This document shows, in pieces, positions 3,553 to 58,770 of a DNA stretch of 64,000 nt. The position numbers were made by a program, and so were the translations under genes. How positions within the stretch are numbered: the first letter of the stretch is position 1; every line of letters starts with the position of its first letter. The notes below the pieces were generated by a model. That model was not told the DNA's origin, made no database searches, and saw nothing but the letters and a program-made list of their open reading frames with translations. This stretch comes from Chryseobacterium sp. KACC 21268 (GTDB lineage Bacteria > Bacteroidota > Bacteroidia > Flavobacteriales > Weeksellaceae), in the NCBI GenBank assembly GCA_028736075.1, contig CP117875.1, positions 186,001 to 250,000 on the forward strand, given 5' to 3'.

Positions 3553-3679
3553 GCGCCCCGACTTGAATGGAGCTCTTTTTCTGGCATTGCGACGACAGAA
3601 TTTCGATTGGAAGACTGAGCCTCAATCGCAATGACAGAAAAAAGCGGGAATGGAAGGCGGAAAAAGGCGCCCAAATAAT
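3553..3679 (+). repeat. Intergenic structured element, copy A (with nested inverted repeat)
   Basis: First of five related elements here. The left end GCGCCCCGACTTGAATGG and right end GGCGGAAAAAGGCGCCCAA match copy D (GCAGCCCGACTTGAGCGG / GGCGGAAAAGCTGCCCAA). The end stems pair GCGCC with GGCGC. The usual poly-T/poly-A loop arm is occupied by a second inverted repeat, CATTGCGA...TCGCAATG (about 3584-3646). The element begins directly after the stop of the minus-strand serine hydrolase gene. Confidence 0.7.
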
Positions 3680-3680
3680 T

Positions 3681-4940
3681 CTACAATTCTCCGTTGGCAG
3701 ATGCTGCTGTATCTTTCTCATTGCCTCCTGCGGGATTCATCGTCTTGTTGAATTTTTCCAATTCTAAAGGAAAATCTTCAAACAATCCAGAAAGCGCTAA
3801 AGCAGAGTAAACTTTCCCTGAATATTTGTTTCCAATCGCGATGATTGTAACCTTCGATTTCAAAAGATGGGCAAAAACCGAATTGGTTCCGTGCCACCAA
3901 CCATTATGATAAGTGAGTTTTTCGCCGTTGTCAAAATTTTTCATTCGGAAGCCTAAGCCGTAATTGTTGATTCCCTTCTTCTCGTTGCTGTAAGGTTCGA
4001 AGATTTTGGCTTCAAGTTCTGGTTTCAGGAAATCTTTGGAATATAAGGCTACGGAAAAATTAAGCAAATCTCTCGGCGTTGTGTAAACATTTTTATCACC
4101 ATAGATCAGGTCCAGTTTATCTAATGGATAAAGTCTGTAGCCACTGAAAAATGACTGGGAAGCAGTAGGAATATCTTTCTTCTGGAAAATGTACGTGTGA
4201 TTCATCTTCAAAGGTTTGAAGACGATCTCCTGCATTGCCTCTGGAAAAGGTGTTGCGGTGACTTTTTCAACGATCAAAGCGAGCAGCGCAAAGTTGGTGT
4301 TGCAGTACATAAATCCGGTATTGGAAATTCTTGCCAGATCTGGTTTATATTTGATCAGCATATCCAAGACATCCTGATTGGTAAGGAATTCTTTTTTAAG
4401 TTCTTCTGGCGCTGGTTTTATGCCCTGATCGAAATGTTCGTATTTTGGAAGTCCGCTTCTTTGTGACAAAAGACTGAAAACGGTAATATCAGTGTATGGG
4501 AATTTGGGGAAAAATTTGGTAAGGTTGTCTTCTAGTTTTAGTTTGCCAGCGTCGATCAGCTTCAGAACGGCCATTGCGGTCATCGTTTTGCTGACGGAAG
4601 CCACGTGAAGTGCTGTGTTCTCATCGATCGGCATTTGTTTGCCTTCTCTACCAAATCCTCGGTACTTTTCGAAGATGATCTTGTTTCCTTTTGCAACTAG
4701 GACGCCTCCACTCAGATCGCCTTGATCCCAAACTTTCTGATAATAATTATTGATCTGAGGAACGATTGAAGCCTGATCTGCTAAGGTTAACTCTTCTGGC
4801 GTGAACACTTTTTCTAGATCGACGTTCCCATAATTTGGAAATTTTGATTCCTCTACATTGTTTTCCTTCTCCGTTTTTTTGCTGCAAGAAACTATTGATA
4901 ATACAACTAAAACCGGGGCAATTACTTTTCTAAAATTCAT
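3681..4940 (-). CDS. Serine hydrolase, beta-lactamase/penicillin-binding-protein fold, lipoprotein
   Basis: About 419 residues. A short hydrophobic signal ends in a lipobox (LSIVSC), so it should be anchored as a lipoprotein. The class C beta-lactamase/DD-peptidase fold is shown by S-x-x-K (SVSK, about residues 115-118) and a Y-x-N motif (YCN in MYCNTNF); HNG (YHNGWWHG) stands in the place of the KTG-type triad. The family includes esterases and D-aminopeptidases, so the substrate cannot be read from sequence. ATG at 4940 is chosen because the upstream in-frame candidate is TTG. It is a single gene; its stop codon abuts structured element A. Confidence 0.85.
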   Translation of the reverse strand: MNFRKVIAPVLVVLSIVSCSKKTEKENNVEESKFPNYGNVDLEKVFTPEELTLADQASIVPQINNYYQKVWDQGDLSGGVLVAKGNKIIFEKYRGFGREGKQMPIDENTALHVASVSKTMTAMAVLKLIDAGKLKLEDNLTKFFPKFPYTDITVFSLLSQRSGLPKYEHFDQGIKPAPEELKKEFLTNQDVLDMLIKYKPDLARISNTGFMYCNTNFALLALIVEKVTATPFPEAMQEIVFKPLKMNHTYIFQKKDIPTASQSFFSGYRLYPLDKLDLIYGDKNVYTTPRDLLNFSVALYSKDFLKPELEAKIFEPYSNEKKGINNYGLGFRMKNFDNGEKLTYHNGWWHGTNSVFAHLLKSKVTIIAIGNKYSGKVYSALALSGLFEDFPLELEKFNKTMNPAGGNEKDTAASANGEL

Positions 4941-5054
4941 TATATCCAAACTTCTTTAAGTTTCGCAAGTTAACATAAAATGGAATTTTGACCGAGTAGA
5001 ATTCTCTTAAGAAATGTTAAATAAAGCGCTGTAACTTTAAATTAATTTAAGATA

Positions 5055-5987
5055 CTAGGCGGTAAAGTTTTCAATTATTTTATCTACAATCACCTGAGCC
5101 AATTTGATCTTGCTTTGATGTGTCCATCCGCCGATGTGTGGCGTAACAATCACTTTTTCAGAATCTAAAAGGAATTGCAAATCTTGATTTTCTACTTCGA
5201 GGTTTTCAAAAGAGGACTTTTCATATTCCAAAACGTCCAGACAAGCACCTAGAACTTTGCCAGCTTCAATCGCTTCTACTAAAGCTTTCGTTTTAAGATT
5301 TTTCCCACGGGCCGTATTGACAAAGTAGAAATTCTTTTCCATTTTTGAAATGAAGTTTTCATCGATCAAATAATTTGTTTCATTGGTCAAAGGAATGTGA
5401 AGGCTTAAAATATCGGCTCTTTTTTGAAGTTCCTCCAAGGAAACCTGCGTTGCAAATTCATCGGAAAGATTTGGCAAAATATCGTGGAAAATGACCTCAA
5501 CACCAAAACCAGACAGTCTCTTAGCAGTTGCCTTTCCCATATTTCCGTAACCAATGATCCCAAAAGTTTTGCCTAGCAGTTCATCGCCTCGGTTTTCTTC
5601 ACGTTTCCAAATCCCATTCTTCACCTCGTTGGAAGCGATGAATAGTCTGTTCATCAAGATCAACAACATCCCGACAACGTGTTCCGCCACAGAGTCGCGG
5701 TTGCCTTCCGGCGAATTGATCAGTTTTATGTTTAATTTTTCGGCAGTTTCGATATCAATATTTTCCATTCCTGCACCTACTCTAGCAATGAATTTGAGAT
5801 GAGAAGCTTTGGTTAAGAAATTCTTATCCAATGGAATTCTGCTTCTGATAATGATGCCTTCGTAATCCTGGATCTTTTCCAACACCTCATCGTAAGTTGA
5901 AATGTGGTCTTCTTCTACCACAAAACCTTTGGCAGTAAGTTGTTCAGAAATGAGAGGATGATTTTTATCGAGCTGAAGGATTTTCAT
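5055..5987 (-). CDS. D-2-hydroxyacid dehydrogenase (phosphoglycerate dehydrogenase-like)
   Basis: 310 residues. The Rossmann NAD-binding motif GIIGYGNMGKATAKRL lies near residues 142-157, and the family catalytic residues are visible: Arg in FVNTARGKNL, an acidic position in DVLEYEKSSF, and His in TPHIGGWTHQ. There is no C-terminal ACT domain, so this is the short form, and allosteric serine control is not expected. It may be 3-phosphoglycerate dehydrogenase (SerA) or another 2-ketoacid reductase; no serB/serC neighbours are present to decide. It starts about 27 bp downstream of the thioesterase terminator. Confidence 0.85.
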   Translation of the reverse strand: MKILQLDKNHPLISEQLTAKGFVVEEDHISTYDEVLEKIQDYEGIIIRSRIPLDKNFLTKASHLKFIARVGAGMENIDIETAEKLNIKLINSPEGNRDSVAEHVVGMLLILMNRLFIASNEVKNGIWKREENRGDELLGKTFGIIGYGNMGKATAKRLSGFGVEVIFHDILPNLSDEFATQVSLEELQKRADILSLHIPLTNETNYLIDENFISKMEKNFYFVNTARGKNLKTKALVEAIEAGKVLGACLDVLEYEKSSFENLEVENQDLQFLLDSEKVIVTPHIGGWTHQSKIKLAQVIVDKIIENFTA

Positions 5988-6013
5988 TGTATGTTGATAA
6001 AATTAGATGTAAA

Positions 6014-6037
6014 AAAAGGGCTAATGAAAGCCCGTTT
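6014..6037 (-). terminator. Rho-independent terminator after the thioesterase gene
   Basis: On the minus strand an AACGGGCT...AGCCC hairpin is followed by seven T. It lies 12 bp after the thioesterase stop. Confidence 0.75.
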
Positions 6038-6048
6038 ATATTTGATGA

Positions 6049-6567
6049 TTATTCTCCTAAGAACAATTTTTTGAGTTCTACAGAATCAGTCGGTTTCATT
6101 CTTCCGGAAAGGATCAGTGACAATTCTTTTCTTCTCAACGCTGCTTCATAGCGTTCTATTTCCAACTCTGTTTCCGGTTCTATGTGAGGAATTGGAATTG
6201 GTCTATTGAACTCATCAACTGCCACGAATGTGTAAATTCCTTCGTTCGTCTGAATTTTCGTCTGATTGATCGGATCATCCAACCAAACATCCACATAGAT
6301 CTCCATCGACGTAGAAAAAGCTCTGGAAACTTTAGATTCCAAAACTACAATCCCACCTTCTGGAATCGGGTGATTGAAAGAAACGTGGTTTACAGAAGCT
6401 GTTACAACGCGTCTTTCGCAATGTCTGGTCGCTGAGATCGAAGCTGCGCGGTCCATTCTTGACAACAGCTCGCCTCCGAAAAGATTTCTTAATGAATTGG
6501 TTTCGTTGGGCAGGACGATATTCGTCATTACCGTAAGGCTATCTATTGGTTTTTTGGATTTTTGCAT
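6049..6567 (-). CDS. Acyl-CoA thioesterase, hotdog fold (YciA/BACH-like)
   Basis: 172 residues with a single 4HBT hotdog domain. The N-terminal LPNETNSLRNLFGGELLSRM is the characteristic start of the YciA/BACH acyl-CoA hydrolases (Asn and the G-G-x-L-L helix), followed by the central helix residues and a VDVWLDDP strand. It would hydrolyse acyl-CoA to free acid and CoA in the cytosol. It overlaps the 3' end of the upstream HU-like gene by 29 bp, so the two form one transcript. Confidence 0.85.
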   Translation of the reverse strand: MQKSKKPIDSLTVMTNIVLPNETNSLRNLFGGELLSRMDRAASISATRHCERRVVTASVNHVSFNHPIPEGGIVVLESKVSRAFSTSMEIYVDVWLDDPINQTKIQTNEGIYTFVAVDEFNRPIPIPHIEPETELEIERYEAALRRKELSLILSGRMKPTDSVELKKLFLGE

Positions 6568-7219
6568 TCGTTGTTGGTTTTATACTATCTATTTTAGTTG
6601 AGTCTTGTTTGGCCACTGTCAGAACTTTCTTTGGTTCCGATTTCTTGACCACCTTTTGAGTCGGGATCTTTGATGATTTTCCAAATATTAATTGTTGATC
6701 TCCGAAAAAAAGCAGAGAAAAAATTCCTAATATCACAATCCCGAAGAATGTCCAAATGACATTTTTATTAAAGGCATAATGATCCGAAACAATGTTTTTC
6801 TTTGGAAAGGTCTTCTTCAAGGTTTGTAGGTTGATGGCTTCCAATCCGAACACATCATCTGCATCGTCCGTCATTTTAATGATCCTATTATCATTATCTA
6901 GTTTGAATTGACCTAGATTTTCCAGATAAAGATGATTGTCAGCCTGCAATTTTTGAAACCATTTCGCAATCTCATTCTTCAGATCCATCTGAACGATAAA
7001 TAGATTGGAATTGGTCTCTTCGGCAATATATTTGGCAAGTTGATTATTTAACACCGATGGTTGGTACTGGAACTTCACGACCTCTTTTGGTGGTGTGATG
7101 ATAGAATTTGCCGCATCGATCTTCGCAGATTCTTTGGTAAGTTCGAAAACGCCAAGATCTGGGACTTCTGCCTTGTGATGCTTCAGAAGATATTGATATA
7201 TATGATGTTCAAAATTCAT
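6539..7219 (-). CDS. HU-CCDC81-type membrane protein
   Basis: About 226 residues. The N-terminal ~115 residues carry two short DNA-binding-protein (HU/IHF)-like units, recognisable by 'IYQYLLKHHKAEVPDLGVFEL' style and 'YLENLGQFKLDNDN' segments; this architecture is the bacterial HU-CCDC81 family. A transmembrane helix follows near 153-172 (WTFFGIVILGIFSLLFF), then a Lys/Ser/Thr-rich periplasmic tail. Family members often end in a SPOR peptidoglycan-binding domain, which is absent here. The role is unknown, but topology suggests an envelope protein with an intracellular HU-like head. ATG at 7219 is used since the longer start is TTG. Confidence 0.75.
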   Translation of the reverse strand: MNFEHHIYQYLLKHHKAEVPDLGVFELTKESAKIDAANSIITPPKEVVKFQYQPSVLNNQLAKYIAEETNSNLFIVQMDLKNEIAKWFQKLQADNHLYLENLGQFKLDNDNRIIKMTDDADDVFGLEAINLQTLKKTFPKKNIVSDHYAFNKNVIWTFFGIVILGIFSLLFFGDQQLIFGKSSKIPTQKVVKKSEPKKVLTVAKQDSTKIDSIKPTTNAKIQKTNR

Positions 7220-7261
7220 TTGGCACAAAACTACATAATTTTTGAGGTTGTAGAAAATATA

Positions 7262-7287
7262 AAAGGCTGCTTTTTACGGCAGCCTTT
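7262..7287 (-). terminator. Terminator after the small T9SS protein gene
   Basis: AAAGGCTGC (7262-7270) pairs perfectly with GCAGCCTTT (7279-7287). It lies 26 bp beyond the stop at 7313 and before the HU-like gene. Confidence 0.75.
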
Positions 7288-7312
7288 AGAAATTGATATG
7301 AATAATTAAGGT

Positions 7313-7981
7313 CTAGTTTGCAAACTTTACAACTTCTGAAACATTGTTACCAGAAATCTGTACCAAGAATAATCCTTTTTGATTAAGATTAAGGTCAATC
7401 GGATTTCCGTTTGCGTTTGCTTTCATTGTTTTGATCACTTTTCCACCAAAGTCATAAACTGTAAGGTCTACGTTTCCTTTTGCTGATGTGAATAGTTTTC
7501 CAGCTGCAACTTGCGATTTTGCTTTGCCACCAACCTCAGAAACCGCTAGGCTTGTAAGTGTAGTTGGGCCTTCAAGATCTCTATCGGAAGATTGGAAATC
7601 TGCACCATTGGATTTATTCTTAAAAACAACACCAATTCTTTGAACAACAGTTCCAGCTGGCATAGTGTTGTTAGAATTTGTGAAAAGTTTTGTATTAAGG
7701 TTAATTGTCCCTACGTAAGCATTTTCTGCTGCATCCCAAGTCATCGTGGTTGTAGAGTTGGTCCAAGCATCATCAAAGTTTCCTTTGTCATTATCGCCAT
7801 CTGTCTGAGATGACCAAACGTGAACATAAAATGTTGGTGCGCTTTGTGGATTATAGAAGCTATAATCGCTGGTTTTACCGTAAGTTAATTTGTACTCACC
7901 GTTGTTTACAGTGTAAGTAAGTTGCCCGAAAGCTGTAGCACTCGCTAACAAAGCAAGTCCTAGAAAATAAAATTTTCTCAT
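7313..7981 (-). CDS. Small secreted protein with T9SS type A sorting domain
   Basis: 222 residues: Sec signal peptide (MRKFYFLGLALLASATAFGQ), a central ~120-residue beta-rich domain with several Asp/Asn-rich loops (YVHVWSSQTDGDNDKGNFDD), and a C-terminal ~70-residue Por secretion tail (VYDFGGKVIKTMKANANG ... GLFLVQISGNNVSEVVKF). The tail directs passage through the type IX secretion system and attachment or release at the surface. The central domain is not one I recognise; its Trp/Asp pattern could suit carbohydrate or calcium binding. It is monocistronic, with its own terminator. Confidence 0.8.
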   Translation of the reverse strand: MRKFYFLGLALLASATAFGQLTYTVNNGEYKLTYGKTSDYSFYNPQSAPTFYVHVWSSQTDGDNDKGNFDDAWTNSTTTMTWDAAENAYVGTINLNTKLFTNSNNTMPAGTVVQRIGVVFKNKSNGADFQSSDRDLEGPTTLTSLAVSEVGGKAKSQVAAGKLFTSAKGNVDLTVYDFGGKVIKTMKANANGNPIDLNLNQKGLFLVQISGNNVSEVVKFAN

Positions 7982-8141
7982 AATTGTTAATTTTTAAGGT
8001 CTATATAAATTATTCAAAATGCTCCTCACAATTGCACTATGAACGAAATGTAAAACTAACATTAATTTTAAATTAACAAATAAAAAAGTGATATTTTAAG
8101 AGCAAATCAACTTAATGCATTGAAAATCAAATACAATAATT

Positions 8142-10244
8142 TTAATTTAGCTTAATAGAAACCCCAAACATGAAGTTAATTCCTGCTTGCGCAAAGTAAT
8201 ACGGTCCACTAAAACCGTTGTTGACATACTTAGTATCCGTGAAATTATTTAATAAGAATCTTAAAACCACTTCATTTTTTGCAAGCGGCAGTTTATAAGA
8301 AACATTAAAATCTGGAACCAAATAATCCTCTAATTGATTGACTTTATCTCCGGAATTATCCAAGAATTGCTTACCAACATATTGCGCAGTCACTCCCACG
8401 TTGAAATCTTTAAATGGAGAATACGTGACATTTCCATTCGCAATCACATTGGGAGAAAAGGAAATATTCGTTTTCCCATAATTCACCAGACCTTCATCGG
8501 TCTCGGAGATGAATTCTTTATTTTTATTAGAACTCAAAGTCGTATTTGCAGACAGCTGTAATTTGTCCGAAAGTTTTGCTAAAACACCCAACTCAATTCC
8601 TGCTCTGTAACTTTTTCCGCTATTGGTTCTGATGAACTCGCCAACATTGTTGATCTGACCATTCAAAACCAATTGGTCTTCGTAATACATATAATAAGCA
8701 TTTGCCGTAAATGCCACTTTCCCCACTTGCTTCTCCAATCCAACTTCGAAGTCGTGAAGCGTTTCTGCCTTCGTATCAGGATTTGCGAAAAGATCATCAC
8801 GATTTGGTTCGCGGTGCGCATTGGCATAGGAAAGAAATATTTTTCCGTTTCCGATATTATAGTTAACACCAGCCTTTGGATTGAAGAACGTCCATTTTCT
8901 GTCCAGGTCTGCACCTTCAGAATCGCCAGCCAATTGGATCTTTGTATCATAATCGATATTCCTCACCTGAAGATCTCCGAAGATCTCAAATTGCCCCAAC
9001 TTATAGATCGCTTTTGCAAAACCCGAAACTTCATTTTTGATAGAGCGGTTTCTATAATATTCCGATTCCTGAATTTGTGGAAAAAAAACGCCCGTCACAT
9101 TTCCAAAGTGCTTTCCGTAATACTGATTGGCAACGGCACCGACATTCAGATCAAGGTTTCCTAGTTTACCATACAAAGTGGAGATCACACCGTAGAAATC
9201 ATTGTCCAGCCATTTTTTTCTGATAAAATCCGAATATTCTTCCTCCGTACCATTCACCACTTGGTTGGGCAAACTGTATCTGGCGAACGGATCACCTTGT
9301 TTGTAATTCTCATAGAACCCTTTTCCTTTGGTGTAATGTGCTGTGATCTCGAGTTTCCACTCCTCAGAAAAACGTTGGTTCCATAGGAATTGATAATGAT
9401 TTTGTCTGTAATTGTCGGTCTCATTATCATAATAACCTGTGATGTTTTCCCAATTTGCATCGTAGATGGCTCCGGAATAATTGAATCTCGGATTCGTTTC
9501 CCAAGTGGCCTTATCGATTCCATTCCACGCTTGATATGTCTTTTCTTTACCTCCGAAGGCTAAAAACCTTAACTCTGTATTTTTTTCTTGAAACAAAGCG
9601 GAAAAGTTATAGGAATGCAGATCGGAAAAAGCCCTGTCAATAAAACCATCAGAATGGATGTGCGTGTACCTTCCCATCACAGACAATCGGTTTTTCCAGA
9701 ACTTCCCGGAATTGACCTCAGCAGAATATTTGTAGGTATTGAACGAGCCATAAGAATCATCCGTTCTCACAGAAAATGTATCCGATGGATCTCTGGAAAT
9801 GACATTGACACTTGCTCCGAAAGCCGAAACACCGTTGGAAGAACTTCCCACACCACGCTGGATCACAATTTGTGAAGCCGAACTCGTCAAATCCGGAACA
9901 TTCACAAAAAAAGTACCCTGCGACTCGGAATCATTATAAGGAACGCCATTCAACATTACATTGATACTTGTTCCAGCCGTTCCTCTGATCCTTAAACCTG
10001 TGTAACCTACACCATTTCCCGCATCGGAAGTAGATATGACGGACATTTGGTTTTTCAAAAGTATCGGCAGATCTTGGCCGAGATTCTTATCCGCAAGTTC
10101 CTTATCAACATTGATAATGGATTTAGCGACCGGCGTTCGTTTGGTGAATTCTACAGCTTTAATGCTTGTAACTTGTACAGAATCTGTAGTTTGTGAAAAA
10201 TAGAATGGAGCAATGAACACTCCTAAAAAAAGTAAACCTTTCAT
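8142..10244 (-). CDS. TonB-dependent outer-membrane receptor, predicted thiamine-related uptake
   Basis: About 700 residues: signal peptide (MKGLLFLGVFIAPFYFSQ), plug domain (NVMLNGVPYNDSESQGTFF ... SQIVIQRGVGSSSNGVSAFG) and a 22-strand beta-barrel ending in FMFGVSIKLN. The ATG at 10244 is chosen because it begins the signal peptide; the open frame extends further upstream through the leader. A TPP riboswitch lies upstream of the coding region, so the receptor should be switched off by thiamine pyrophosphate. From this I infer that it imports thiamine, a phosphorylated form or a pyrimidine precursor across the outer membrane. TPP-controlled TonB receptors are known from comparative genomics of Bacteroidota. 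No thiamine synthesis gene is adjacent. Confidence 0.88.
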   Translation of the reverse strand: MKGLLFLGVFIAPFYFSQTTDSVQVTSIKAVEFTKRTPVAKSIINVDKELADKNLGQDLPILLKNQMSVISTSDAGNGVGYTGLRIRGTAGTSINVMLNGVPYNDSESQGTFFVNVPDLTSSASQIVIQRGVGSSSNGVSAFGASVNVISRDPSDTFSVRTDDSYGSFNTYKYSAEVNSGKFWKNRLSVMGRYTHIHSDGFIDRAFSDLHSYNFSALFQEKNTELRFLAFGGKEKTYQAWNGIDKATWETNPRFNYSGAIYDANWENITGYYDNETDNYRQNHYQFLWNQRFSEEWKLEITAHYTKGKGFYENYKQGDPFARYSLPNQVVNGTEEEYSDFIRKKWLDNDFYGVISTLYGKLGNLDLNVGAVANQYYGKHFGNVTGVFFPQIQESEYYRNRSIKNEVSGFAKAIYKLGQFEIFGDLQVRNIDYDTKIQLAGDSEGADLDRKWTFFNPKAGVNYNIGNGKIFLSYANAHREPNRDDLFANPDTKAETLHDFEVGLEKQVGKVAFTANAYYMYYEDQLVLNGQINNVGEFIRTNSGKSYRAGIELGVLAKLSDKLQLSANTTLSSNKNKEFISETDEGLVNYGKTNISFSPNVIANGNVTYSPFKDFNVGVTAQYVGKQFLDNSGDKVNQLEDYLVPDFNVSYKLPLAKNEVVLRFLLNNFTDTKYVNNGFSGPYYFAQAGINFMFGVSIKLN

Positions 10245-10300
10245 TCTTAAAAAAATTTTGTTTGTTAAAATTATTTTAGAATAAAAGGGGCGACTATAGA

Positions 10301-10375
10301 TATAAATGATGAATGATAGTTGATAAATGATTCTTCTGCAGATGATCAAGTATCGTTAATGCTTTATCATTTATA
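10301..10375. repeat. AT-rich 'ATGATAA' dispersed repeat, copy 1
   Basis: TATAAATGAT (10301-10310) is matched by ATCATTTATA (10366-10375), enclosing several further TGATAA-type units. Similar sequence occurs at 34373-34464 and 46797-46885. This copy lies in the leader of the TonB receptor gene, immediately 3' of the TPP aptamer. Confidence 0.5.
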
Positions 10376-10380
10376 ATGAT

Positions 10381-10450
10381 GTATCCCTAAACAGCATTAT
10401 CTGTTCCAGGTTCATTGGGTATAATCTCAGCTTCTTACAGCACCCCTTAA
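10381..10450 (-). promoter_or_regulatory. TPP (THI-box) riboswitch aptamer
   Basis: On the minus strand the conserved TPP aptamer blocks occur in order: AAGGGGTG, then CTGAGATTATACCC, then TGAACCTG, then GATAATGCTG, then TAGGGATAC. These match the pyrimidine-sensing (CUGAGA) and pyrophosphate-sensing arms of the thi-box. The coding start is 137 nt further on. Within that leader, CGCCCCTTTTATT (about 10277-10293) could pair with the aptamer's AAGGGG and may serve the expression platform; this part is a guess. Confidence 0.93.
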
Positions 10451-10483
10451 ATTTCTGACTGCGAAATTACAAATATTTTTGAA

Positions 10484-11152
10484 TTAATAGGCTTTATTGT
10501 TTTTATCCACGTAAAAATAATTCTTTCCGTCTTTTGAAACTTCAAAAAGATGAGCCGTTTTCCAGGAAAGATTCATTTTGATGTCAGCGTAAACAAAAGG
10601 AATAATGACTTTATTCTGCTTGTCAACAATCCCAAACTTATTATTCCGAACAGCGATCATCATTGGATTTTCCCTGTCACTTTCCAGAACATACAACATC
10701 TGGTATTGTGGGTAGATGTCAAAATCTTTGTAACCACCTAAGTCAATGCTGTCTTTGCTTACCAATCCGTACATTCCGTTCAGTGTGAAGGCTTTAAATC
10801 TGGACATTTCGTAAGGTTGGGAACATTTTCCGAGATCCGCTTTTTTATATTGATAAACTCGTTTTCCTTTTTTATTGATACGGTAAGAAATACTATTTTT
10901 CTCAACAGTCGCAAAATCAGCGGAGCCGAAAACTCTGGCGTTTTTATTTGGGGAATTCAGAAGGTTGCAATCTTCAGAAAAAAACATAGCAATGTGATAT
11001 TCTGGCGTGATCACCATCTTACCTTGCGGGCTCACATATCCGGATTTCCCATCGATTTTTTGAGGGATTAATGCAGGCAAATAATCTTCCTTCATCTGAG
11101 AAAAAGCTGCAAGGAAACAGCTCATTAATAGTAAGCTAAAGAATTTTTTCAT
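10484..11152 (-). CDS. Exported WG-repeat protein
   Basis: 222 residues with a Sec signal peptide (MKKFFSLLLMSCFLAAFSQ). At least two WG/KWG-type repeats are visible, one near the N-terminus (GKSGYVSPQGKMVITPEY) and one near the C-terminus (NNKFGIVDKQNKVIIPFVY), with degenerate copies between. Such beta-repeat proteins are frequent in Bacteroidota envelopes and have no assigned activity. It is followed at 10 bp distance, upstream in the same direction, by the DUF2752 gene, so the two are likely cotranscribed. Confidence 0.75.
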   Translation of the reverse strand: MKKFFSLLLMSCFLAAFSQMKEDYLPALIPQKIDGKSGYVSPQGKMVITPEYHIAMFFSEDCNLLNSPNKNARVFGSADFATVEKNSISYRINKKGKRVYQYKKADLGKCSQPYEMSRFKAFTLNGMYGLVSKDSIDLGGYKDFDIYPQYQMLYVLESDRENPMMIAVRNNKFGIVDKQNKVIIPFVYADIKMNLSWKTAHLFEVSKDGKNYFYVDKNNKAY

Positions 11153-11164
11153 CGGATCGCGTGT

Positions 11165-18342: not shown

Positions 18343-18480
18343 GCAGCCTGACCATCTGAATTTATCATTTATTTGAATGGATGGCCAATTCGGTAGGTTT
18401 GGGTGGAAGTCATTGTAACAAGCGGGAAAGCAATAGCAAAAAGCGGGAACAGTTATCGGATAAAGCTGCTCAAAGTAATT
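18343..18480 (+). repeat. Intergenic structured element, copy B (diverged)
   Basis: Ends are GCAGCCTGAC (18343-18352) and AAAGCTGCTCAAAGTAATT (18462-18480), with GCAGC pairing GCTGC as in copy D. The interior is diverged. The right end abuts, and its TTA contributes to, the stop codon of the minus-strand acyltransferase gene. Confidence 0.55.
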
Positions 18481-49935: not shown

Positions 49936-49948
49936 AATATAAAAAAAT

Positions 49949-50450: not shown

Positions 50451-50553
50451 TTTTTAGGAGCTATTTCCTGCTGTCCACTGTATCTTTTTTTTCCAAAGCT
50501 AAATTCCAGCCGCAAAAAAAGGATGCCGTTTCCATCAGGGCTATTAATAATTG
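50451..50553 (-). repeat. Intergenic structured element, copy C
   Basis: On the minus strand: AATAGCCCTGATGGAAACGG ... GGACAGCAGGAAATAGCTCC, with the central CATCCTTTTTTTGCGGCTGG facing TTTGGAAAAAAAAG. The end closest to ribH is the CTCC/TTAGGAG end, so in the sense of ribH transcription it reads in the same orientation as copies A, B and E do behind their genes. Confidence 0.7.
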
Positions 50554-50620
50554 AGATTCAAAAAAATTTGCATAGATATCAAAAAGAAAGTATTAATTTT
50601 AAAACACAAAATATTACAAG

Positions 50621-51469: not shown

Positions 51470-51503
51470 ATTTTTATATTCATTAAATTATTTTAGAGAT
51501 ATC

Positions 51504-51532
51504 AAAAAACCACTGTCATTCAGTGGTTTTTT
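51504..51532. terminator. Bidirectional terminator
   Basis: AAAAAACCACTG / CAGTGGTTTTTT, a perfect 12-bp stem with A- and T-tracts, between the metallopeptidase (+) and the MFS gene (-). Confidence 0.85.
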
Positions 51533-51555
51533 CATTTAAATTAAATGCCTAACTT

Positions 51556-52977: not shown

Positions 52978-53467
52978 AGTCGTATTTGATAAATTTAAAA
53001 TGAAATTACCGAAATATTACAATAGACACTTGATTAATTATTAGATTGATGAAAATCAGTCAGAAACTTTATTACTCTAATACAATTAATAGTATTCTTA
53101 TGTAAAAAACAATGGCTTTAAGATAGAAATATTATCAATTAATAATGTTCTTCAGTGAAATTAATTTAAATTTAATGTTAAGGTCTTGTAATAAAAATCT
53201 AGCATCTCACTCATTTTTATTACTTAAGGAATAATATATAACTTGTAGAAAAGACTTCCTTAAATATGATAAGACCTATAATTTCGGGGATTATTGGGCA
53301 TTTTTCAAATTTACATTTCTACAAATTTCACTTGCAACAGGCCGATTATACTATTTAATCGAATAATATCTCCTCCTCCACATTTGTATTTTTCAACAAC
53401 TGTAGATAAATATAAAAGAAATATACTTAGATTAAGTACTAGAATTGAGAAGTAATAAAACAAAAAA
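52978..53467. other. Non-coding gap, nothing recognised
   Basis: About 490 bp, very AT-rich, between the MFS gene start and the tRNA terminator. No ORF of convincing codon usage, structured element or riboswitch seen. Confidence 0.5.
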
Positions 53468-53493
53468 CCTTGACAATCATTCGATTATCAAGG
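53468..53493 (-). terminator. Terminator of the tRNA operon
   Basis: CCTTGA-C-AATC pairs with GATT-A-TCAAGG around loop ATTC; on the minus strand a six-T run follows. Confidence 0.75.
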
Positions 53494-53501
53494 CTATTTT
53501 G

Positions 53502-53585
53502 TACCCCAGACGGGACTTGAACCCGTACGTCCTTACGGACACAGGATTTTAAGTCCTGCGTGTCTACCAGTTCCACCACCAGGGC
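53502..53585 (-). tRNA. tRNA-Leu (anticodon UAA)
   Basis: 84 nt with a long variable arm. On the minus strand the anticodon loop reads CTTAAAA (anticodon TAA); T-arm GGGTTCAAGTCCC. The acceptor stem has three G-U pairs. CCA is not encoded. Confidence 0.93.
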
Positions 53586-53593
53586 GAGGGTGG

Positions 53594-53666
<73 letters not shown>

Positions 53667-53706
53667 ATAAAAAAAATTCCTAATTGCTTAGAAATTTTTA
53701 GCATTG

Positions 53707-53788
53707 TGCGGATGAAGGGACTCGAACCCCCACGCGGTGAAGCACCAGATCCTAAGTCTGGCATGGCTACCAATTACATCACATCCGC
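53707..53788 (-). tRNA. tRNA-Leu (anticodon UAG)
   Basis: 82 nt with a long variable arm; anticodon loop CTTAGGA (anticodon TAG); acceptor GCGGATG/CATCCGC perfect. First of three tRNAs in the operon (Leu-UAG, Gly-GCC, Leu-UAA). CCA is not encoded. Confidence 0.93.
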
Positions 53789-53828
53789 ATTATTTTGAAG
53801 AACTTCTTTTCTTTTGTTTTGGTGAGTG

Positions 53829-53860
53829 CAAATATAGAGACTTTTCATATTACCTCCAAA
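53829..53860 (-). promoter_or_regulatory. Promoter of the tRNA operon
   Basis: Minus strand: TTTG (53860-53857), 20-bp spacer, TATATTTG (53836-53829), an exact TAnnTTTG box, about 35 bp upstream of the first tRNA. One of the best Bacteroidota promoter matches in the window. Confidence 0.65.
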
Positions 53861-53957
53861 ATTATTTCTATATTTTTTTAAAGTTTTTTCAACGGTTGCT
53901 TTTGGACTACATCGATAGTTTTTTATTACCTTTACACTCTTAAAACATTTACGAGAC

Positions 53958-54338
53958 ATGGAATTAACAGGAACAATCAAGAAGATTTCTGATTTACAAA
54001 CATTTGCAAGCGGATTTCAAAAAAAAGAACTCGTTCTTTTGACTGAAGAACAGTATCCACAACCAATCAATATCGAATTTACCCAAGATAAAGTTGATTT
54101 GCTGAACGCATACAAAGTTGGAGATAGCGTAAAAGTTCATATCAATATCAGAGGAAGAGAATGGACAAGTCCTCAAGGTGAAGTAAAGTATTTCAACTCT
54201 ATCGTAGGATGGAGAATGGAAAAAGGTGGTGCTTCCGATTTCAACGAGCCTACTCAAGCAACTCCAAGTCAAGGTCAACCGGCTGCTGAGAACAAGAACG
54301 TTTTCGCAGAGGACGAAGATGACGATTTGCCATTCTAA
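53958..54338 (+). CDS. DUF3127 protein with SSB-like acidic tail
   Basis: 126 residues. The N-terminal ~90 residues are the DUF3127 OB-fold-like domain (MELTGTIKKISDLQTFASGF ... YKVGDSVKVHINIRGREW). After a Gln/Pro-rich linker the C-terminus is EDEDDDLPF, nearly identical to the acidic tip of single-stranded-DNA-binding protein (DDDIPF). This suggests it could dock SSB-tail partners at replication or repair sites; that is inferred. It is divergent from the tRNA operon and has its own terminator. Confidence 0.85.
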   Translation: MELTGTIKKISDLQTFASGFQKKELVLLTEEQYPQPINIEFTQDKVDLLNAYKVGDSVKVHINIRGREWTSPQGEVKYFNSIVGWRMEKGGASDFNEPTQATPSQGQPAAENKNVFAEDEDDDLPF

Positions 54339-54362
54339 GATTTTTAGAATCAATCTATAATA

Positions 54363-54396
54363 AATCCCTGCATTTTTGATAAAAGATGCAGGGATT
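54363..54396 (+). terminator. Terminator after the DUF3127 gene
   Basis: AATCCCTGCAT / ATGCAGGGATT, perfect 11-bp stem followed by CTTTTT. Confidence 0.82.
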
Positions 54397-54425
54397 CTTT
54401 TTATATTTCAACTTTGAAATCGTCT

Positions 54426-55229
54426 ATGGAAATCTTTAAAATCATTGAACCCAAAACTTCAAAAGTTCCCATAATCATTAGTGTTCCTCACGCAGGCACT
54501 TTCATTCCAGAAGATATTAAATTTAAAATGAATCCCGAATTGTCTGATAAATTGGACGACACAGACTGGTTCATCGATAAGCTTTATGGTTTTGCAACTG
54601 ACTTGGGAATTACAATTATTAAAGCCAATTACAGCAGATGGGTTGTCGACCTTAATAGAAATCCAGAAAACCAACCACTTTACAATGACGGAAGAGTGAT
54701 TACGGATGTTGTGACCGTGACGGATTTTAATGGAAATCAGATTTATAAAAATAATTACATTCCGGATTCTCAGGAAGTTGCAAGACGCATTGAATTGTAT
54801 CACAAACCTTATCACGAGAAATTGGAAGAACTTTTACAACAGACAAAAGCTGAATTCGGGAAAGTTTTGTTGTTTGATGCGCATTCGATAAGGAAGTCTG
54901 TTCCGGGAATTCGTTCTGAGGATTTTCCGGATTTGATTCTTGGCGATAACGATGAAACTTCTGCAAGTTCTGAATTAATAAGCACAACAATCTATTCTCT
55001 AAAAAGCACAGGTTACGAGTTTTCTCACAATCATCCTTTCAAAGGTGGTTACATCACGAGAAGTTTTGGAAAACCTACAGAAAACATTCACGCTTTGCAA
55101 CTGGAAATGTGCAAGACGAATTATATGGATGCTTCGGAAATGAGTTATGACGAGACTAATGCGGAGAGAATTCAGGTGGTTTTGAAAGAGACTTTGGTAA
55201 ATCTTATCGAGCAAATGAAATTTATTTGA
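54426..55229 (+). CDS. hutG: N-formylglutamate amidohydrolase
   Basis: About 267 residues. ISVPHAGTFIPEDI, DDTDWFIDKLY, NYSRWVVDLNRNPEN and LFDAHSIRKSVPGI are family blocks; metal-binding Asp/His residues are in SVPHAG and FDAHS. It hydrolyses N-formylglutamate to glutamate and formate, the last step of the HutF branch of histidine breakdown. ATG at 54426 is chosen over an upstream TTG. Next gene is hutF. Confidence 0.9.
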   Translation: MEIFKIIEPKTSKVPIIISVPHAGTFIPEDIKFKMNPELSDKLDDTDWFIDKLYGFATDLGITIIKANYSRWVVDLNRNPENQPLYNDGRVITDVVTVTDFNGNQIYKNNYIPDSQEVARRIELYHKPYHEKLEELLQQTKAEFGKVLLFDAHSIRKSVPGIRSEDFPDLILGDNDETSASSELISTTIYSLKSTGYEFSHNHPFKGGYITRSFGKPTENIHALQLEMCKTNYMDASEMSYDETNAERIQVVLKETLVNLIEQMKFI

Positions 55230-55252
55230 CTTTGATAATATTACCATATAGT

Positions 55253-55330
55253 TTGTCATTCAGCAGGAAACCTAGCGAAGTGGTTCGACGAAGTAAATCA
55301 AGATTGTTTAGAGTCCTACGGAATGACAAA
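55253..55330. repeat. Inverted repeat of the TTTGTCATTC type
   Basis: TTTGTCATTC (55253-55262) and GAATGACAAA (55321-55330) are perfect inverted ends of a 78-bp element containing CGAAGTGG/TCGACGAAG and AGAGTCCTACG. The form is a common flavobacterial intergenic repeat. Confidence 0.65.
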
Positions 55331-55370
55331 ATAATGTTTTTATCGCAAAATTTGAATTTATGTTGAATCT

Positions 55371-55462
55371 GCAGCCCGACTTGAGCGGAAATCCTTTTTT
55401 GCGGCTGGTAAAGCTTAGGCAAAAAGATTGGGAGCGGAAGGCGGAAAAGCTGCCCAAATAAT
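55371..55462 (+). repeat. Intergenic structured element, copy D
   Basis: Clearest copy: GCAGCCCGACTTGAGCGGAA ... GGCGGAAAAGCTGCCCAAAT, ends pairing GCAGC/GCTGC; inner TCCTTTTTTGCGGCTGG facing TTAGGCAAAAAGAT. It lies between hutG and hutF, 41 bp after the TTTGTCATTC repeat, and is the one copy that does not directly follow a gene end. Confidence 0.75.
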
Positions 55463-55522
55463 AAAAAATGGCTTCGAGAGCCTCAGCCTGACAAATTAAA
55501 TACAAATACTATTACTTATAAA

Positions 55523-56887
55523 ATGTACACATTCAAAGGATTACTGACCGAAAACGGATGGATGGAAAATGCTTTTGTAAAGCTGGACAATGCCGGAAAT
55601 ATCACTGAACTGAAAACCGTGGAAAAACCCGAAGGCGAATACGTTGACGGCTATGTTTTGCCGGGATTTCAGAATGCGCATTCACACGCTTTTCAGTATG
55701 CGATGTGCGGCTTGGCGGAATATTTTGAAGGCTCGGAAGTTCCCGATGATTTCTGGAGCTGGCGCGATGCGATGTACCGAATTGCGTTATCTCTTTCGCC
55801 GGAGCAAATGGAAGATGTGGCGGCGATGTTGTACGCAGAAATGCTGCGAAACGGTTATACATCGGTGGCAGAATTCCATTATGTGCATCACGATAAAGAC
55901 GGAAAAGCTTATCAAAATCTCTCCGAAATGGGTGAAAGATTGGTTGCTGCCGCGAAAAGAGTTGGGATTAGAATCACGTTGATTCCGATGTTTTATCAGA
56001 AAGGGAATTTTGGGACGGAACCTTACGATTTGCAAAGGCGTTTTATTTCTAAAAACATTGAGGATTATTATCAATTGCTGGAAGCTTCGAAACAGTCGAC
56101 AAAGTTTTATGATAAAGCTAATCTGGCGGTTGGGTCGCATTCTTTGAGAGCGGTCCAGAAAGAGGATTTGATTGAGTCTTCGTTGCTTGCGAAAGATTAT
56201 CCGTTTCATATTCACATTGCGGAGCAGTTGAAGGAAATCAAAGATTCTGTGGATTTCTACGGGAAAAGACCGGCGGAATGGCTTTTGGAAAATTGTGAGG
56301 TGAATGAGAATTTCAATTTGATTCATTGCACACATTTGGAGGATAATGAGGTTGAAGGCATTGCGAAATCTGGTGCGAACATCGTGCTTTGTCCATCAAC
56401 GGAAGGGAATTTGGGTGATGGAAGATTTAGATTTAAAGATTATCAGAAGTTTGGTGGCAATTGGTCGATTGGAACGGACAGTCAGATTTGCGTAAACCCT
56501 TTGGAAGATTTGAGGATTTTGGATTACGGACAGCGAATCTACACGCACAGACGCGATACTTTTTTCCAGCCAAATCTTGGTGACAGTGGATTCAATGCTT
56601 TGAAGACGGCCTGGAAATCCGGAAGGAAGTCGATGGCTTTTGAGAATGAGAATTTCTTCAAGGTCGGACAAAGTTTTGATGCAGTTGTGATTGATGCGAA
56701 AGCGCCTTTGATTGCGACTTCTTCTCTTAAAAATCTTTGCAATACGATTGTTTATTCTTCTGATTCATCGCATTTGCTTGGAACCGTCGTTGCCGGAAAA
56801 TGGGTGGTTAGAAATGGGAAACACGAGCATTGTGAAGAGGTGCGACAAGGTTTTGTGAATTCTATTAATCAAATTAAAATTAGATAA
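55523..56887 (+). CDS. hutF: Formimidoylglutamate deiminase
   Basis: 454 residues of the amidohydrolase superfamily. Metal-binding motif GFQNAHSHAFQ near 55, then FHIHIAEQLKEI, NLIHCTHLEDNEV and SIGTDSQICVNPLEDLRIL with the metal-binding Asp. It converts N-formimidoyl-L-glutamate to N-formyl-L-glutamate and ammonia. Together with HutG this shows the five-step (Pseudomonas-type) histidine degradation; hutH, hutU and hutI are not in this window. The region's codon third positions look richer in G/C than the neighbours. Confidence 0.92.
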   Translation: MYTFKGLLTENGWMENAFVKLDNAGNITELKTVEKPEGEYVDGYVLPGFQNAHSHAFQYAMCGLAEYFEGSEVPDDFWSWRDAMYRIALSLSPEQMEDVAAMLYAEMLRNGYTSVAEFHYVHHDKDGKAYQNLSEMGERLVAAAKRVGIRITLIPMFYQKGNFGTEPYDLQRRFISKNIEDYYQLLEASKQSTKFYDKANLAVGSHSLRAVQKEDLIESSLLAKDYPFHIHIAEQLKEIKDSVDFYGKRPAEWLLENCEVNENFNLIHCTHLEDNEVEGIAKSGANIVLCPSTEGNLGDGRFRFKDYQKFGGNWSIGTDSQICVNPLEDLRILDYGQRIYTHRRDTFFQPNLGDSGFNALKTAWKSGRKSMAFENENFFKVGQSFDAVVIDAKAPLIATSSLKNLCNTIVYSSDSSHLLGTVVAGKWVVRNGKHEHCEEVRQGFVNSINQIKIR

Positions 56888-56891
56888 AATA

Positions 56892-56954
56892 TTTTCTCGC
56901 AGATTTAGCAGATAAGAGTCAAAAAATCTGACCGATTAGCCAAATCTGCGAGAA
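56892..56954. repeat. CTCGCAGATTT inverted repeat
   Basis: TTTCTCGCAGATTTAGC (56892-56908) and GCCAAATCTGCGAGAAA (56938-56954) pair at 16 of 17 positions. It fills most of the hutF-aat gap and may act as terminator or as a dispersed repeat; similar CGCAGATTT repeats are frequent in related genomes. Confidence 0.6.
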
Positions 56955-56976
56955 ACACAATTAAATATATTCTAAA

Positions 56977-57624
56977 ATGTTTCGCTTAGACCCAGAAGAT
57001 ATTTCTTTTCCAGACCCGGAACTTTACGACCCAGATGGCGGACTAATGGCCATTGGTGGCGATTTGAAACCGGAAAGACTTTGGTTTGCCTATCAATTGG
57101 GTCTTTTTCCTTGGTACAACGAAGGCGAAGAAATCCTTTGGTGGTGTTCGGACCCGAGATTTGTGTTGTTCCCGAATGATATCAAAATCTCAAAATCGAT
57201 GAAGAAAATCTTGCGAGACGATGTTTTTCAATTTACGGAAAACCAATGTTTCGAAGATGTGATGAGAAATTGTAAAATGGCGGAACGAAAAGACCAAGAT
57301 GGAACGTGGATTAACGAAGAACTCATACAATCATTTGTGAAACTTCACAAATTTGGGAAAGCGAAAAGTTTTGAAGTTTGGCAGAATGGCGAATTGGTTG
57401 GTGGTTTCTACGGCATCCAGGTCGGGAATGTCTTTTGTGGCGAAAGTATGTTTTCCAAAGTTTCCAACGCCTCCAAAGCTGGATTTATACATTTCACAAC
57501 AAAATATCAAAATGAATGGGAACTTATTGATTGCCAAATCCATTCTGAACATTTGGAAAGTCTGGGCGCGAAAATGATTCCTAAAATCGATTATTTAAAA
57601 ATCTTAAAACAACAAATCTCTTGA
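56977..57624 (+). CDS. aat: Leucyl/phenylalanyl-tRNA-protein transferase
   Basis: 215 residues, slightly short for the family. Markers are FPDPELYDPDGGLMAIGGDL (N-terminal region), AYQLGLFPWYNEGEEILWWCSDPRFVL and the GGFYGIQVGNVFCGESMFS catalytic block. It adds Leu/Phe to proteins with N-terminal Arg/Lys for ClpAP degradation. The stop overlaps the DMT gene start by 4 bp. Confidence 0.95.
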   Translation: MFRLDPEDISFPDPELYDPDGGLMAIGGDLKPERLWFAYQLGLFPWYNEGEEILWWCSDPRFVLFPNDIKISKSMKKILRDDVFQFTENQCFEDVMRNCKMAERKDQDGTWINEELIQSFVKLHKFGKAKSFEVWQNGELVGGFYGIQVGNVFCGESMFSKVSNASKAGFIHFTTKYQNEWELIDCQIHSEHLESLGAKMIPKIDYLKILKQQIS

Positions 57625-58502
57625 CAGCAGAAAAACAAAAATGGGTTCTCCTGATTGCACTATCACTAATCTGGGGCTCATCTTTTATATTGATAAAAAA
57701 ATCACTGGAACATTTCAATCCTTATGAAGTCGGTGCTTTGCGGGTTTTGATTTCGGGAATCGTTCTGATGCCTTACGCCATTTCAAAAATTAAATTGTTT
57801 CCAAAACGACATTTGAAATGGTTGATTATTGCCGCATTCACAGGAAGTTTCATTCCAATGTTTCTCTTCCCGATGGCGGAAACCGAAATCAGCAGCAGTA
57901 TTGCGGGAATCATCAATTCTATGATGCCGATATTTGTAATTATTGTAGGTTCTTTGGTTTGGAAATTCTCGACGACAAAGCGGCAATTGTTGGGTGTTTT
58001 GATAAGTTTTGTTGGGGCTTGCATCTTGGCTTTGGGAAGTGGCGAAAGTGGTGAAATCAAAATCTATCCAATCCTGTTATTGATTCTTGCGGTCCTACTC
58101 TACGCCATTTGCACAACCACTATCAAATCGAAACTGCACGAAGTTCCAGCGATTCTGATGTCAGCTTATGTCTTTTCGTTTGTCTTGTTCTTGCCATCAT
58201 TGATTGCTTTGATTTTTGCGGGCTTTTTCAAAGACTTGACGTTGAATCAAAGTACATTGGAAGGATTGGGTTTTGTGGCGATATTATCGATTTTCGGGAC
58301 GGGATTGGCGATGATGATGAATTACAAATTACTGAGTATTTCAACACCTTTATTCGCTTCTACGGTGACTTTGCTGATGCCAATCGTTGCGATTATCTGG
58401 GGAATTTTGGATGGTGAGAAATTGACGACGCAGCAATCTTTTGGAGCTTTGGTCATTTTGGCCGGGTTGATATTTTTGAGGAGTAAGCCGAAGGTGGTTT
58501 GA
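57621..58502 (+). CDS. DMT-superfamily (EamA) transporter
   Basis: 293 residues with ten transmembrane helices in two EamA halves (ALSLIWGSSFILIKKSLEHF at the N-terminus; FASTVTLLMPIVAIIWGILDGE near the C-terminus). Substrate unknown, possibly amino acids or metabolites for export. The start is TTG overlapping the aat stop (TTGA). No ATG exists in frame until far into the first helix, so TTG is well supported. Confidence 0.88.
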   Translation: MTAEKQKWVLLIALSLIWGSSFILIKKSLEHFNPYEVGALRVLISGIVLMPYAISKIKLFPKRHLKWLIIAAFTGSFIPMFLFPMAETEISSSIAGIINSMMPIFVIIVGSLVWKFSTTKRQLLGVLISFVGACILALGSGESGEIKIYPILLLILAVLLYAICTTTIKSKLHEVPAILMSAYVFSFVLFLPSLIALIFAGFFKDLTLNQSTLEGLGFVAILSIFGTGLAMMMNYKLLSISTPLFASTVTLLMPIVAIIWGILDGEKLTTQQSFGALVILAGLIFLRSKPKVV

Positions 58503-58677
58503 TGGTTGTTTGATAGGTTTTAAGGTAAGAGGAAATGAATTCATTCTCTGAAAATCGCAGGTCGCTCCTCTGGAGCTTAATTTATCTTGTGTCTGTTTTC
58601 TATAAACAGGTCTTCGCTCCGCGACTTTTATGTAAAAGGTTTCTTTTAATACTGAAATGTGAATAAAATACTGAAAC

Positions 58678-58770
58678 CCATAGCCCTGATTGCAGTGGAA
58701 ATCCCACAGCAAGCGATGGGAAAGCAAGGTGCGAGGAATTGCAACGGAAAGCAGGTTCCCGGCTCCTAAA
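58678..58770 (+). repeat. Intergenic structured element, copy E
   Basis: ATAGCCCTGATTGCAGTGGA (58680-58699) aligns to copies C and D; right end GGCTCCTAAAAA. The end pair AGCC/GGCT is maintained although bases differ. The interior lacks the long T/A arm. It lies in the 305-bp gap between the DMT gene (+) and the TPR gene (-), right end toward the latter. The rest of the gap (58503-58677) shows no gene. Confidence 0.65.

What the first reader, a model, noticed from the sequence alone, without database searches (positions are those of the whole stretch)
3553..58770. Five copies of a structured intergenic element with co-varying end stems
Copies at 3553-3679, 18343-18480, 50451-50553, 55371-55462 and 58678-58770 share a left block (GC(A/G)(G/C)CC-GA ... 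GGAA) and a right block (GGCGGAA-AGCTGCCCAA or AGCTCCTAAA). The outermost stem is kept by paired changes: GCGCC/GGCGC in A, GCAGC/GCTGC in B and D, AGCC/GGCT in E. This is the pattern expected of a conserved RNA (or of a hairpin-type mobile repeat). Four of five sit with the same end toward a gene's 3' end, which suggests that they are transcribed as 3' UTR structures. Rfam holds a Bacteroidota motif called Flavo-1; I cannot decide whether this is the same.
Basis: partly seen in the sequence, partly recalled or inferred. Interest (0 to 1): 0.75.

Follow-up and report, generated by a model that had tools for sequence, protein, structure and literature searches.

The report
Replication-oriented Flavo-1 hairpin repeats
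The look-alike stretches belong to Flavo-1, a listed but unexplained RNA family that here proves to be a set of well over a hundred dispersed hairpin repeats, which mostly keep their places between species, tend to point against the direction of DNA replication and trade hairpins with one another.

Summary
C and E match Rfam Flavo-1 (RF01705) above the gathering score. D is below it. A is found only by a model built here. B is a decayed copy; relative G026 has an intact one at that place.

The genome (an Epilithonimonas relative) carries at least 163 copies with one core: short helices, an almost invariant A.G mismatch and purine-rich internal loops. Paired changes abound, wobble intermediates are rare.

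The 3'-UTR reading does not hold as a general rule. Orientation follows chromosome arms set by GC skew alone: the better-folding strand lies opposite the G-rich strand (110 of 163 copies, p=5e-5; second genome 87 of 121, p=3e-6).

Places are old (14 of 16 kept between G000 and G003), although element-free sites exist (D in G002 and G014, B in G028). The element at a kept place can change type as a block with both arms matched. One 51-nt tip sits exactly at two non-orthologous places.

Best reading: a dispersed, mostly vertically inherited hairpin repeat, spread by a replication-coupled single-strand process, homogenised by hairpin exchange and kept foldable by selection. The partner enzyme is unknown; a Pfam Y1_Tnp transposase is not required. 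Function remains inferred.

The parts
3549..3675 (+). Copy A, type III (GACTTG core, GCGCC/GGCGC outer stem, long apical hairpin GCATTGCGA...TCGCAATGACA)
   Evidence: own model R1 37.9 bits, E 1.1e-9, not in training set; descriptor hit; no Rfam hit at E<=1
18343..18480 (+). Copy B, decayed type III copy: outer GCAGC/GCTGC stem and 3' block kept, core lost
   Evidence: no R1 hit at E<=5; orthologous place in G026 carries a regular type III copy
50453..50547 (-). Copy C, type Ia, 18 nt behind the ribH stop, antisense to ribH and to the zinc-peptidase gene after it
   Evidence: Rfam Flavo-1 68.1 bits; R1 77.2 bits, in training set; context; Pfam names of neighbours
55367..55459 (+). Copy D, type III, between an N-formylglutamate amidohydrolase and an amidohydrolase gene, sense to both
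   Evidence: Rfam Flavo-1 35.6 bits, below the gathering score; R1 74.1 bits, in training set; Pfam
58677..58769 (+). Copy E, type Ic (CCACAG apical module), between convergent EamA and TPR genes
   Evidence: Rfam Flavo-1 43.1 bits; R1 77.4 bits, in training set; Pfam

Best explanation
The copies are members of the Flavo-1 family, which in this genome is a dispersed non-coding hairpin repeat, mostly about 75-125 nt, with at least 163 copies. Each copy folds, on one strand, into an outer stem, two short helices around a nearly invariant A.G mismatch and purine-rich internal loops, an inner helix of five interchangeable types, and a variable tip. Shown here: family identity, fold, mostly fixed orthologous positions, presence of the same inner hairpin at different loci and of different hairpins at one locus, and orientation against the replication direction. 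Inferred: the copies were placed by a replication-coupled process that acts on single strands (which would set orientation by arm). They are now mostly inherited vertically and homogenised by ectopic gene conversion that moves hairpins with both arms. They stay foldable because something (a protein or the fold itself) recognises the single strand with its conserved G.A loops. The transposition step and the recognising factor are not seen.
For: Identity. Copy number: 123 Rfam-model matches and 150 R1 matches of 150 scored candidates; 163 distinct after merging, two partial R1 matches left out. Fold; A.G mismatch in 95 of 98 copies, 2 swapped to G.A, 1 G.G; five inner helix types, arms agreeing in 98 of 99 copies, the odd one a wrong parse. 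Places: R1 finds an element at the C site in 16 genomes clearly plus 2 weakly of 22, at D in 9 of 11, at E in 14 of 21; at E the other seven are one decayed copy (G031), five with another downstream gene and one cut by a contig end; 14 of 16 mapped G000 copies kept in G003. Exchange: at C the element differs in type between relatives while both flanks align; at E and at 180049 inner helix and tip differ in type between G000 and G003, with outer arms and 3' flank kept; at 67571 the tip; the 51-nt E-site tip of G003, G028, G032 and G005 is found exactly at the non-orthologous G000 position 3523945 in another outer context. Orientation: arcs chosen by GC skew alone give G000 27+/69- vs 41+/26- (p 4.6e-5) and G032 19+/50- vs 37+/15- (p 2.9e-6); G004 agrees by a shuffle test with arcs fitted to the copies (11 of 2000). 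Arm effect persists with gene direction fixed (p 0.019, 0.037); the gene effect is not significant with arm fixed (0.12, 0.40). Patchy sampled distribution with many copies in some carriers: 15 of 148 genomes, 8 of 83 genera.
Against: No insertion junction or target duplication was read. The D site is element-free in G002 and G014 with both neighbouring genes kept, but the flanks are too diverged to show a junction or to tell gain from loss. In all three G000-G003 swaps the 5' flank has diverged too, so the replaced block may begin upstream of the element. No partner enzyme was found. Stable positions over much of a genus also fit a host function. The sense strand folds better under both RNA and DNA parameters (70 and 85 of 97), so RNA and single-stranded DNA are not separated. 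One inner position alternates G.U with G-C, which leans to RNA. Arm and gene direction are correlated, the regression rests on 71 copies with arms fitted to the copies, and in the split test held-out copies agreed only moderately.
Confidence: 0.5

Rival explanations
1. Functional RNA element: the sense-strand RNA (free or in UTRs) binds a protein and each locus is kept for it. Apical variation is neutral and gene conversion is a by-product.
For: Invariant loop residues and paired changes; positions kept in much of the genus; G.U/G-C at one inner position; G.U-type deviations 9 against A.C-type 3 over; several F. psychrophilum 5' transcribed regions coincide with Flavo-1 hits (PMC9723704).
Against: Co-directional neighbours run antisense to the folding strand about twice as often as sense (47 vs 24). 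Orientation follows the arm. Wobble pairs are 9 of 1,099 cells at the seven pairs counted, and 9 vs 3 is not significant. The same RNA-seq paper saw no consistent strand and many hits outside transcripts.
Confidence: 0.25
2. Chromosome-organising or replication DNA site: a host protein binds the folded or double-stranded element, and orientation by arm is the function (as for other polar chromosome motifs).
For: Arm polarity in three genomes; positions kept in much of the genus; intergenic placement.
Against: Polarity is only about 67-72 percent. In the sample the family is absent from most of the phylum and has 0 to 4 strong matches in some relatives of carriers. No density gradient toward origin or terminus was tested.
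Confidence: 0.17
3. REP/REPIN-type element mobilised by a RAYT (IS200-like Y1 transposase).
For: Hairpin, intergenic, high copy, arm polarity; 16 of 25 genomes examined hold a Y1_Tnp.
Against: G005 (99% complete) has 32 strong Flavo-1 matches and no Y1_Tnp match. The only Y1_Tnp match of this genome is flanked by a different hairpin repeat, CAGCTCCGTAGGAGCGACCTGTTAATA. No GTAG or CGTC tag at an end.
Confidence: 0.04
4. Covariation without selection: intrastrand template switching at quasi-palindromes copies mutations from one arm to the other.
For: Near absence of single-arm intermediates.
Against: Such correction would erase mismatches, yet the A.G, G.A and loop positions are almost invariant. 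The swaps seen replace whole inner modules, not single bases.
Confidence: 0.04

Closest known systems
Flavo-1 RNA motif, Rfam RF01705 (Weinberg et al. 2010, PMC2864571, table row and passages seen; listed there as probable RNA, not cis-regulatory, Bacteroidetes)
   Same: Core sequence and structure; C and E above gathering score; 72 of the 123 listed matches of this genome at or above the cut-off
   Different: Type III copies (A, D) mostly score below the gathering score (27 of 32 in my set; all 15 of type II are above it). Outer-arm types, hairpin exchange, kept places and replication polarity were not in the passages I saw. The behaviour is that of a dispersed repeat rather than of an sRNA gene
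REP / REPIN elements (PMC3116915, PMC3733652; abstracts and passages seen)
   Same: High-copy intergenic hairpins, often downstream of genes, dispersed, patchy among species
   Different: Mostly 75-125 nt with a conserved multi-loop core instead of 20-40 bp palindromes; no GTAG/CGTC tag; Y1_Tnp not required; orthologous places kept in much of a genus
MITEs (recalled class)
   Same: Short, non-coding, many copies, no enzyme of their own
   Different: No long terminal inverted repeats; element-free sites exist but no target-site duplication could be read
IS608-type single-strand transposons that target the lagging-strand template (PMC6006769, start of abstract seen in a search listing)
   Same: Orientation tied to replication; hairpins
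   Different: No transposase gene in the element and no left/right end signature seen

Membership tests
Flavo-1 (RF01705) | Score at or above Rfam's gathering threshold (42 bits) | tested here: met
   C 68.1, E 43.1; not met by D (35.6), A, B; 72 of 123 listed genome matches meet it
Flavo-1 (RF01705) | Consensus core with two short helices and purine internal loops | tested here: met
   alignments; descriptor finds A, C, D, E, not B; R1 model
Flavo-1 (RF01705) | Expressed as an RNA | not testable with these tools
   no transcriptome of this organism on hand; published data in F. psychrophilum are inconclusive
REP/REPIN | 20-40 bp palindrome with GTAG or CGTC tag at one end | tested here: not met
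   element ends read TAGCCC.../...GCTCC(T)AAA or GCAGCCC.../...GCTGCCCAAA
REP/REPIN | Associated RAYT transposase (Y1_Tnp) | tested here: not met
   G005: 32 strong Flavo-1 matches, 0 Y1_Tnp; the Y1_Tnp gene of G000 is flanked by another repeat
MITE | Terminal inverted repeats | tested here: not met
   only a short outer stem of 3-5 bp that varies in sequence
MITE | Target-site duplication and empty sites in relatives | tested here: inconclusive
   element-free D site in G002 and G014, junction not readable; B absent in G028 with another repeat in place; 14 of 16 G000 places occupied in G003, 2 in stretches replaced as a whole
Single-strand transposon (IS200/IS605 like) | Orientation follows replication arm | tested here: met
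Single-strand transposon (IS200/IS605 like) | Y1 transposase acts on the element | tested here: not met
   no Y1_Tnp match in G005; activity itself not testable

The most novel reading that the evidence does not exclude
Flavo-1 sites are docking places whose hairpins are exchanged in trans by a dedicated, still unknown system at the replication fork. The foldable strand, with its conserved G.A loops, is the substrate. Selection acts on exchangeability and folding, not on any gene next door. This would be a hairpin-cassette shuffling system unlike transposons, integrons or REPs.
Probability: 0.13. Interest if true: 0.85.

Novelty: new variant of a known kind. Interest (0 to 1): 0.57.

Why it matters
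Flavo-1 has been listed as an unexplained RNA since 2010 and appears without a function in a table of abundant small RNAs (PMC9029176, passages seen). If it is a replication-polarised repeat whose hairpins move as blocks, then part of its covariation comes from swapping pre-matched hairpins. Covariation in high-copy families would then need a check for block exchange before it is read as RNA function. The polarity gives a concrete, quickly testable hypothesis on how it spread. Many Flavo-1 annotations in Bacteroidota genomes may need another label.

Tried and rejected
RAYT mobilisation: rejected on G005 and on the different repeat around the Y1_Tnp gene of this genome.

A 3'-UTR terminator role: among 24 antisense copies within 35 nt of a stop, no terminator precedes the element, 5 hits fall inside it, 1 at its edge, 6 after it and 12 have none. 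Among 41 farther antisense copies 23 have a terminator before it, 2 inside, 2 after, 14 none. Among 42 sense cases 13 before, 1 inside, 3 after, 25 none. Baseline: 36 of 73 gene ends with a terminator, 8 of 73 after shuffling. The home-made rule is crude. In outgroups the place behind ribH carries no element: R1 hits 15 of 80 loci, all among the 18 closest (L252-L269), none of the other 62. By eye 6 of 11 outgroup sequences viewed show a hairpin plus T-run there, but the next gene is not the one found in Epilithonimonas.

Deciding the strand by wobble type: G.U-type 9, A.C-type 3 over; not significant, and the copies were found with sense-trained models. The outermost position (o4, C.A in 30 type III copies) was not counted as a pair. 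Rows dropped: 5 of 103; 4 of 103; 7 of 66.

Locating the origin by dnaA: it lies at 1.72 Mb, away from both GC-skew switches, so it was not used. GC skew over the copy loci alone was too noisy. In the split test, arms fitted to the first 103 copies gave an odd arc (67571-3320308), and held-out copies agreed only moderately (15+/31- inside, 9+/5- outside). The skew-defined arcs are the cleaner test.

Counts are lower bounds: one search scored 150 candidates of 1823 and all 150 matched; copy A is missing from that list.

Slips found on checking: the copy compared with 365421 was the wrong one (its G003 partner is L176:10103-10216), so that row is not used; the offset printed for L110 was wrong, that element lies 51 nt behind ribH and is counted. 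One search stopped on a missing file after printing part of its output. In one search the alignment for 67571 was sliced in the wrong orientation; the copy is present in G003 (L165:7372-7476). One search left out 1766580, whose flanks fell on different pieces.
Full report
What was checked. Copies C and E match Rfam Flavo-1 (RF01705) over its gathering score, D below it at E 7.5e-4, A and B not at E<=1. A descriptor that asks only for the conserved loop letters and four pairing rules finds A, C, D and E in the window and on average 0.1 hits in 30 Markov surrogates. A covariance model R1 from 35 copies of this genome gives A, which was not in its training set, 37.9 bits, E 1.1e-9. B has no match to either model. 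Its outer stem and right block are intact, its core is not, and relative G026 has a regular type III copy at that very place. B is best read as a decayed copy.

Where it comes from. The nearest named relative found is Epilithonimonas lactis (ribH protein 100 percent identical; its contig of 931,563 bp has the length of G003:C6). So the window is a Weeksellaceae chromosome, most likely Epilithonimonas.

Number and anatomy. The Rfam model lists 123 matches in the 4.07 Mb genome, 72 over the cut-off. R1 lists 150 of 150 scored candidates. Merging gives 163 distinct copies, a lower bound. I pulled 103 with flanks. By a rough rule they sort into Ia 24, Ib 8 (GTTGGA extension), Ic 18 (CCACAG tip), II 15 (GACCCG, an extra 3' hairpin and an outer stem such as GCGTA/TACGC or CAAT/ATTG), III 32 (GACTTG; D, and by its sequence A) and 6 others. 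All 103 score on the Flavo-1 model. In 98 parsed copies the pair x-x' is TA 48, AT 28, GC 20 and unpaired 2; the next two pairs are GC/GC 31, AC/GT 32, GT/AC 27, the rest 8; the A.G mismatch is kept in 95, swapped to G.A in 2 and G.G in 1. The inner helix has five versions whose arms agree in 98 of 99 copies. On the 35-row alignment the covariation score and the cells changed on both sides exceed all 500 shuffles, while the number of such pairs and of pair types does not.

Kept places, exchanged hairpins. At the C site (behind ribH) R1 finds the element clearly in 16 and weakly in 2 of 22 genus genomes; at D in 9 of 11; at E in 14 of 21. Of the four misses at C, G005, G007 and G006 show altered sequence with element-like pieces and G014 has other sequence. 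At E one miss is a decayed copy (G031), five have another gene downstream and G026 is cut by its contig end. At D the two misses, G002 and G014, keep both neighbouring genes with 83-84 nt between them and no element: an element-free site, whose flanks are too diverged to read a junction or to tell gain from loss. Of 16 G000 copies whose flanks could be mapped on the fetched part of G003, 14 are in place, and 2 lie in stretches replaced as a whole. Other repeats in the same gaps (a GTCATTC...GGAATGAC palindrome near D, an IS200-type hairpin near E) come and go.

What changes at kept places is the hairpin. At C, G000, G003 and G026 carry one type, G013, G030 and G008 another, with both flanks alignable. 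At E and at 180049 the inner helix and tip differ in type between G000 and G003, at 67571 the tip; outer arms and 3' flank are kept, but in all three the 5' flank has diverged, so the replaced block may start upstream. A 51-nt tip that G003, G028, G032 and G005 carry at E (G001 with one change) is found letter for letter in G000 at 3523945, where the outer pairs on both sides differ. Within G000, 1555672 (type Ib) and 1766580 (type I outer) share a 74-nt tip at 96 percent. So hairpins move between loci with both arms. Part of the covariation is therefore exchange of ready-made hairpins.

Orientation. Of 103 copies, 47 lie antisense and 24 sense to two co-directional neighbours, 18 are convergent and 14 divergent, by simple ORF calls. 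A first shuffle test, with arcs fitted to the copies in data and shuffles alike, showed that strand depends on the chromosome half in G000 (1 of 2000), G032 (2 of 2000) and G004 (11 of 2000). To avoid choosing the halves by the copies, I sampled 20 pieces each of G032 and G000 (plus three window pieces), set the arcs by GC skew alone, and counted again: G032 19+/50- in the arc with G-rich plus strand against 37+/15- outside (p 2.9e-6); G000 27+/69- against 41+/26- (p 4.6e-5). Fisher's test takes copies as independent. The strand that folds better (sense, in 70 of 97 by RNA and 85 of 97 by DNA parameters) thus tends to lie opposite the G-rich, presumably leading, strand. With gene direction held fixed the arm effect remains (p 0.019 and 0.037); with the arm held fixed the gene effect does not reach significance (0.12 and 0.40) (71 copies, arms there set by the copies themselves).

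Distribution. Strong matches occur in 15 of 148 sampled genomes of the phylum, 8 of 83 genera (at most 29 candidates were scored per genome). In the genus 14 of 14 relatives searched have 8 to 38 matches at E<=1e-12. The Y1_Tnp family is missing from G005, which has 32.

Reading. Shown: family, fold, copy number, mostly kept places, hairpin exchange, polarity. Inferred: a replication-coupled single-strand origin, ectopic conversion as the exchange mechanism, selection for a foldable strand. Not decided: RNA or DNA as the selected molecule, the factor that binds it, and any benefit to the host. In the library searched I found three papers that name Flavo-1 and four that hold RF01705. I read only the passages on it in PMC9723704, PMC2864571 and PMC9029176; none of these passages describes copy number, exchange or polarity.

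Noticed in passing
window 55256-55332: Palindrome-type repeat GTCATTC...GGAATGAC just upstream of copy D; present in G000, G003 and G013, absent at the same place in G028, G026 and G008.
   Followed up: partly
window about 58558-58620; L009:1104-2000: Hairpin repeat of the kind GGTCGCTCC...GGAGC / GACCTGTTAATA near copy E; the same kind flanks the genome's only Y1_Tnp match (L009), so it looks like that enzyme's REP.
   Followed up: partly
window 10367-10457, minus strand: TPP riboswitch-like match, 50.1 bits, just below the gathering score of 54.3.
   Followed up: no
L101, L106, L108, L099, L111, behind ribH: Altered Flavo-1 copies at the C site carry an insert resembling TAGTTTATCCTGAGCTTGTCGAAG in the same arm.
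   Followed up: no
copies throughout G000, about 25 nt 5' of the core and in many tips: A loosely conserved box TTTTGAnGACAAA lies upstream of the core in many copies of this genome and recurs inside many hairpin tips; by eye it is not evident in the 19 copies of other genera shown.
   Followed up: partly
G000:C1:1724019-1724219: dnaA lies at 1.72 Mb, far from both switches of GC skew (near 0.2 and 2.4 Mb).
   Followed up: no
L118 and L119, between the two genes that flank copy D: Element-free D site in G002 and G014, which would be the place to look for an insertion or loss junction in closer strains.
   Followed up: partly
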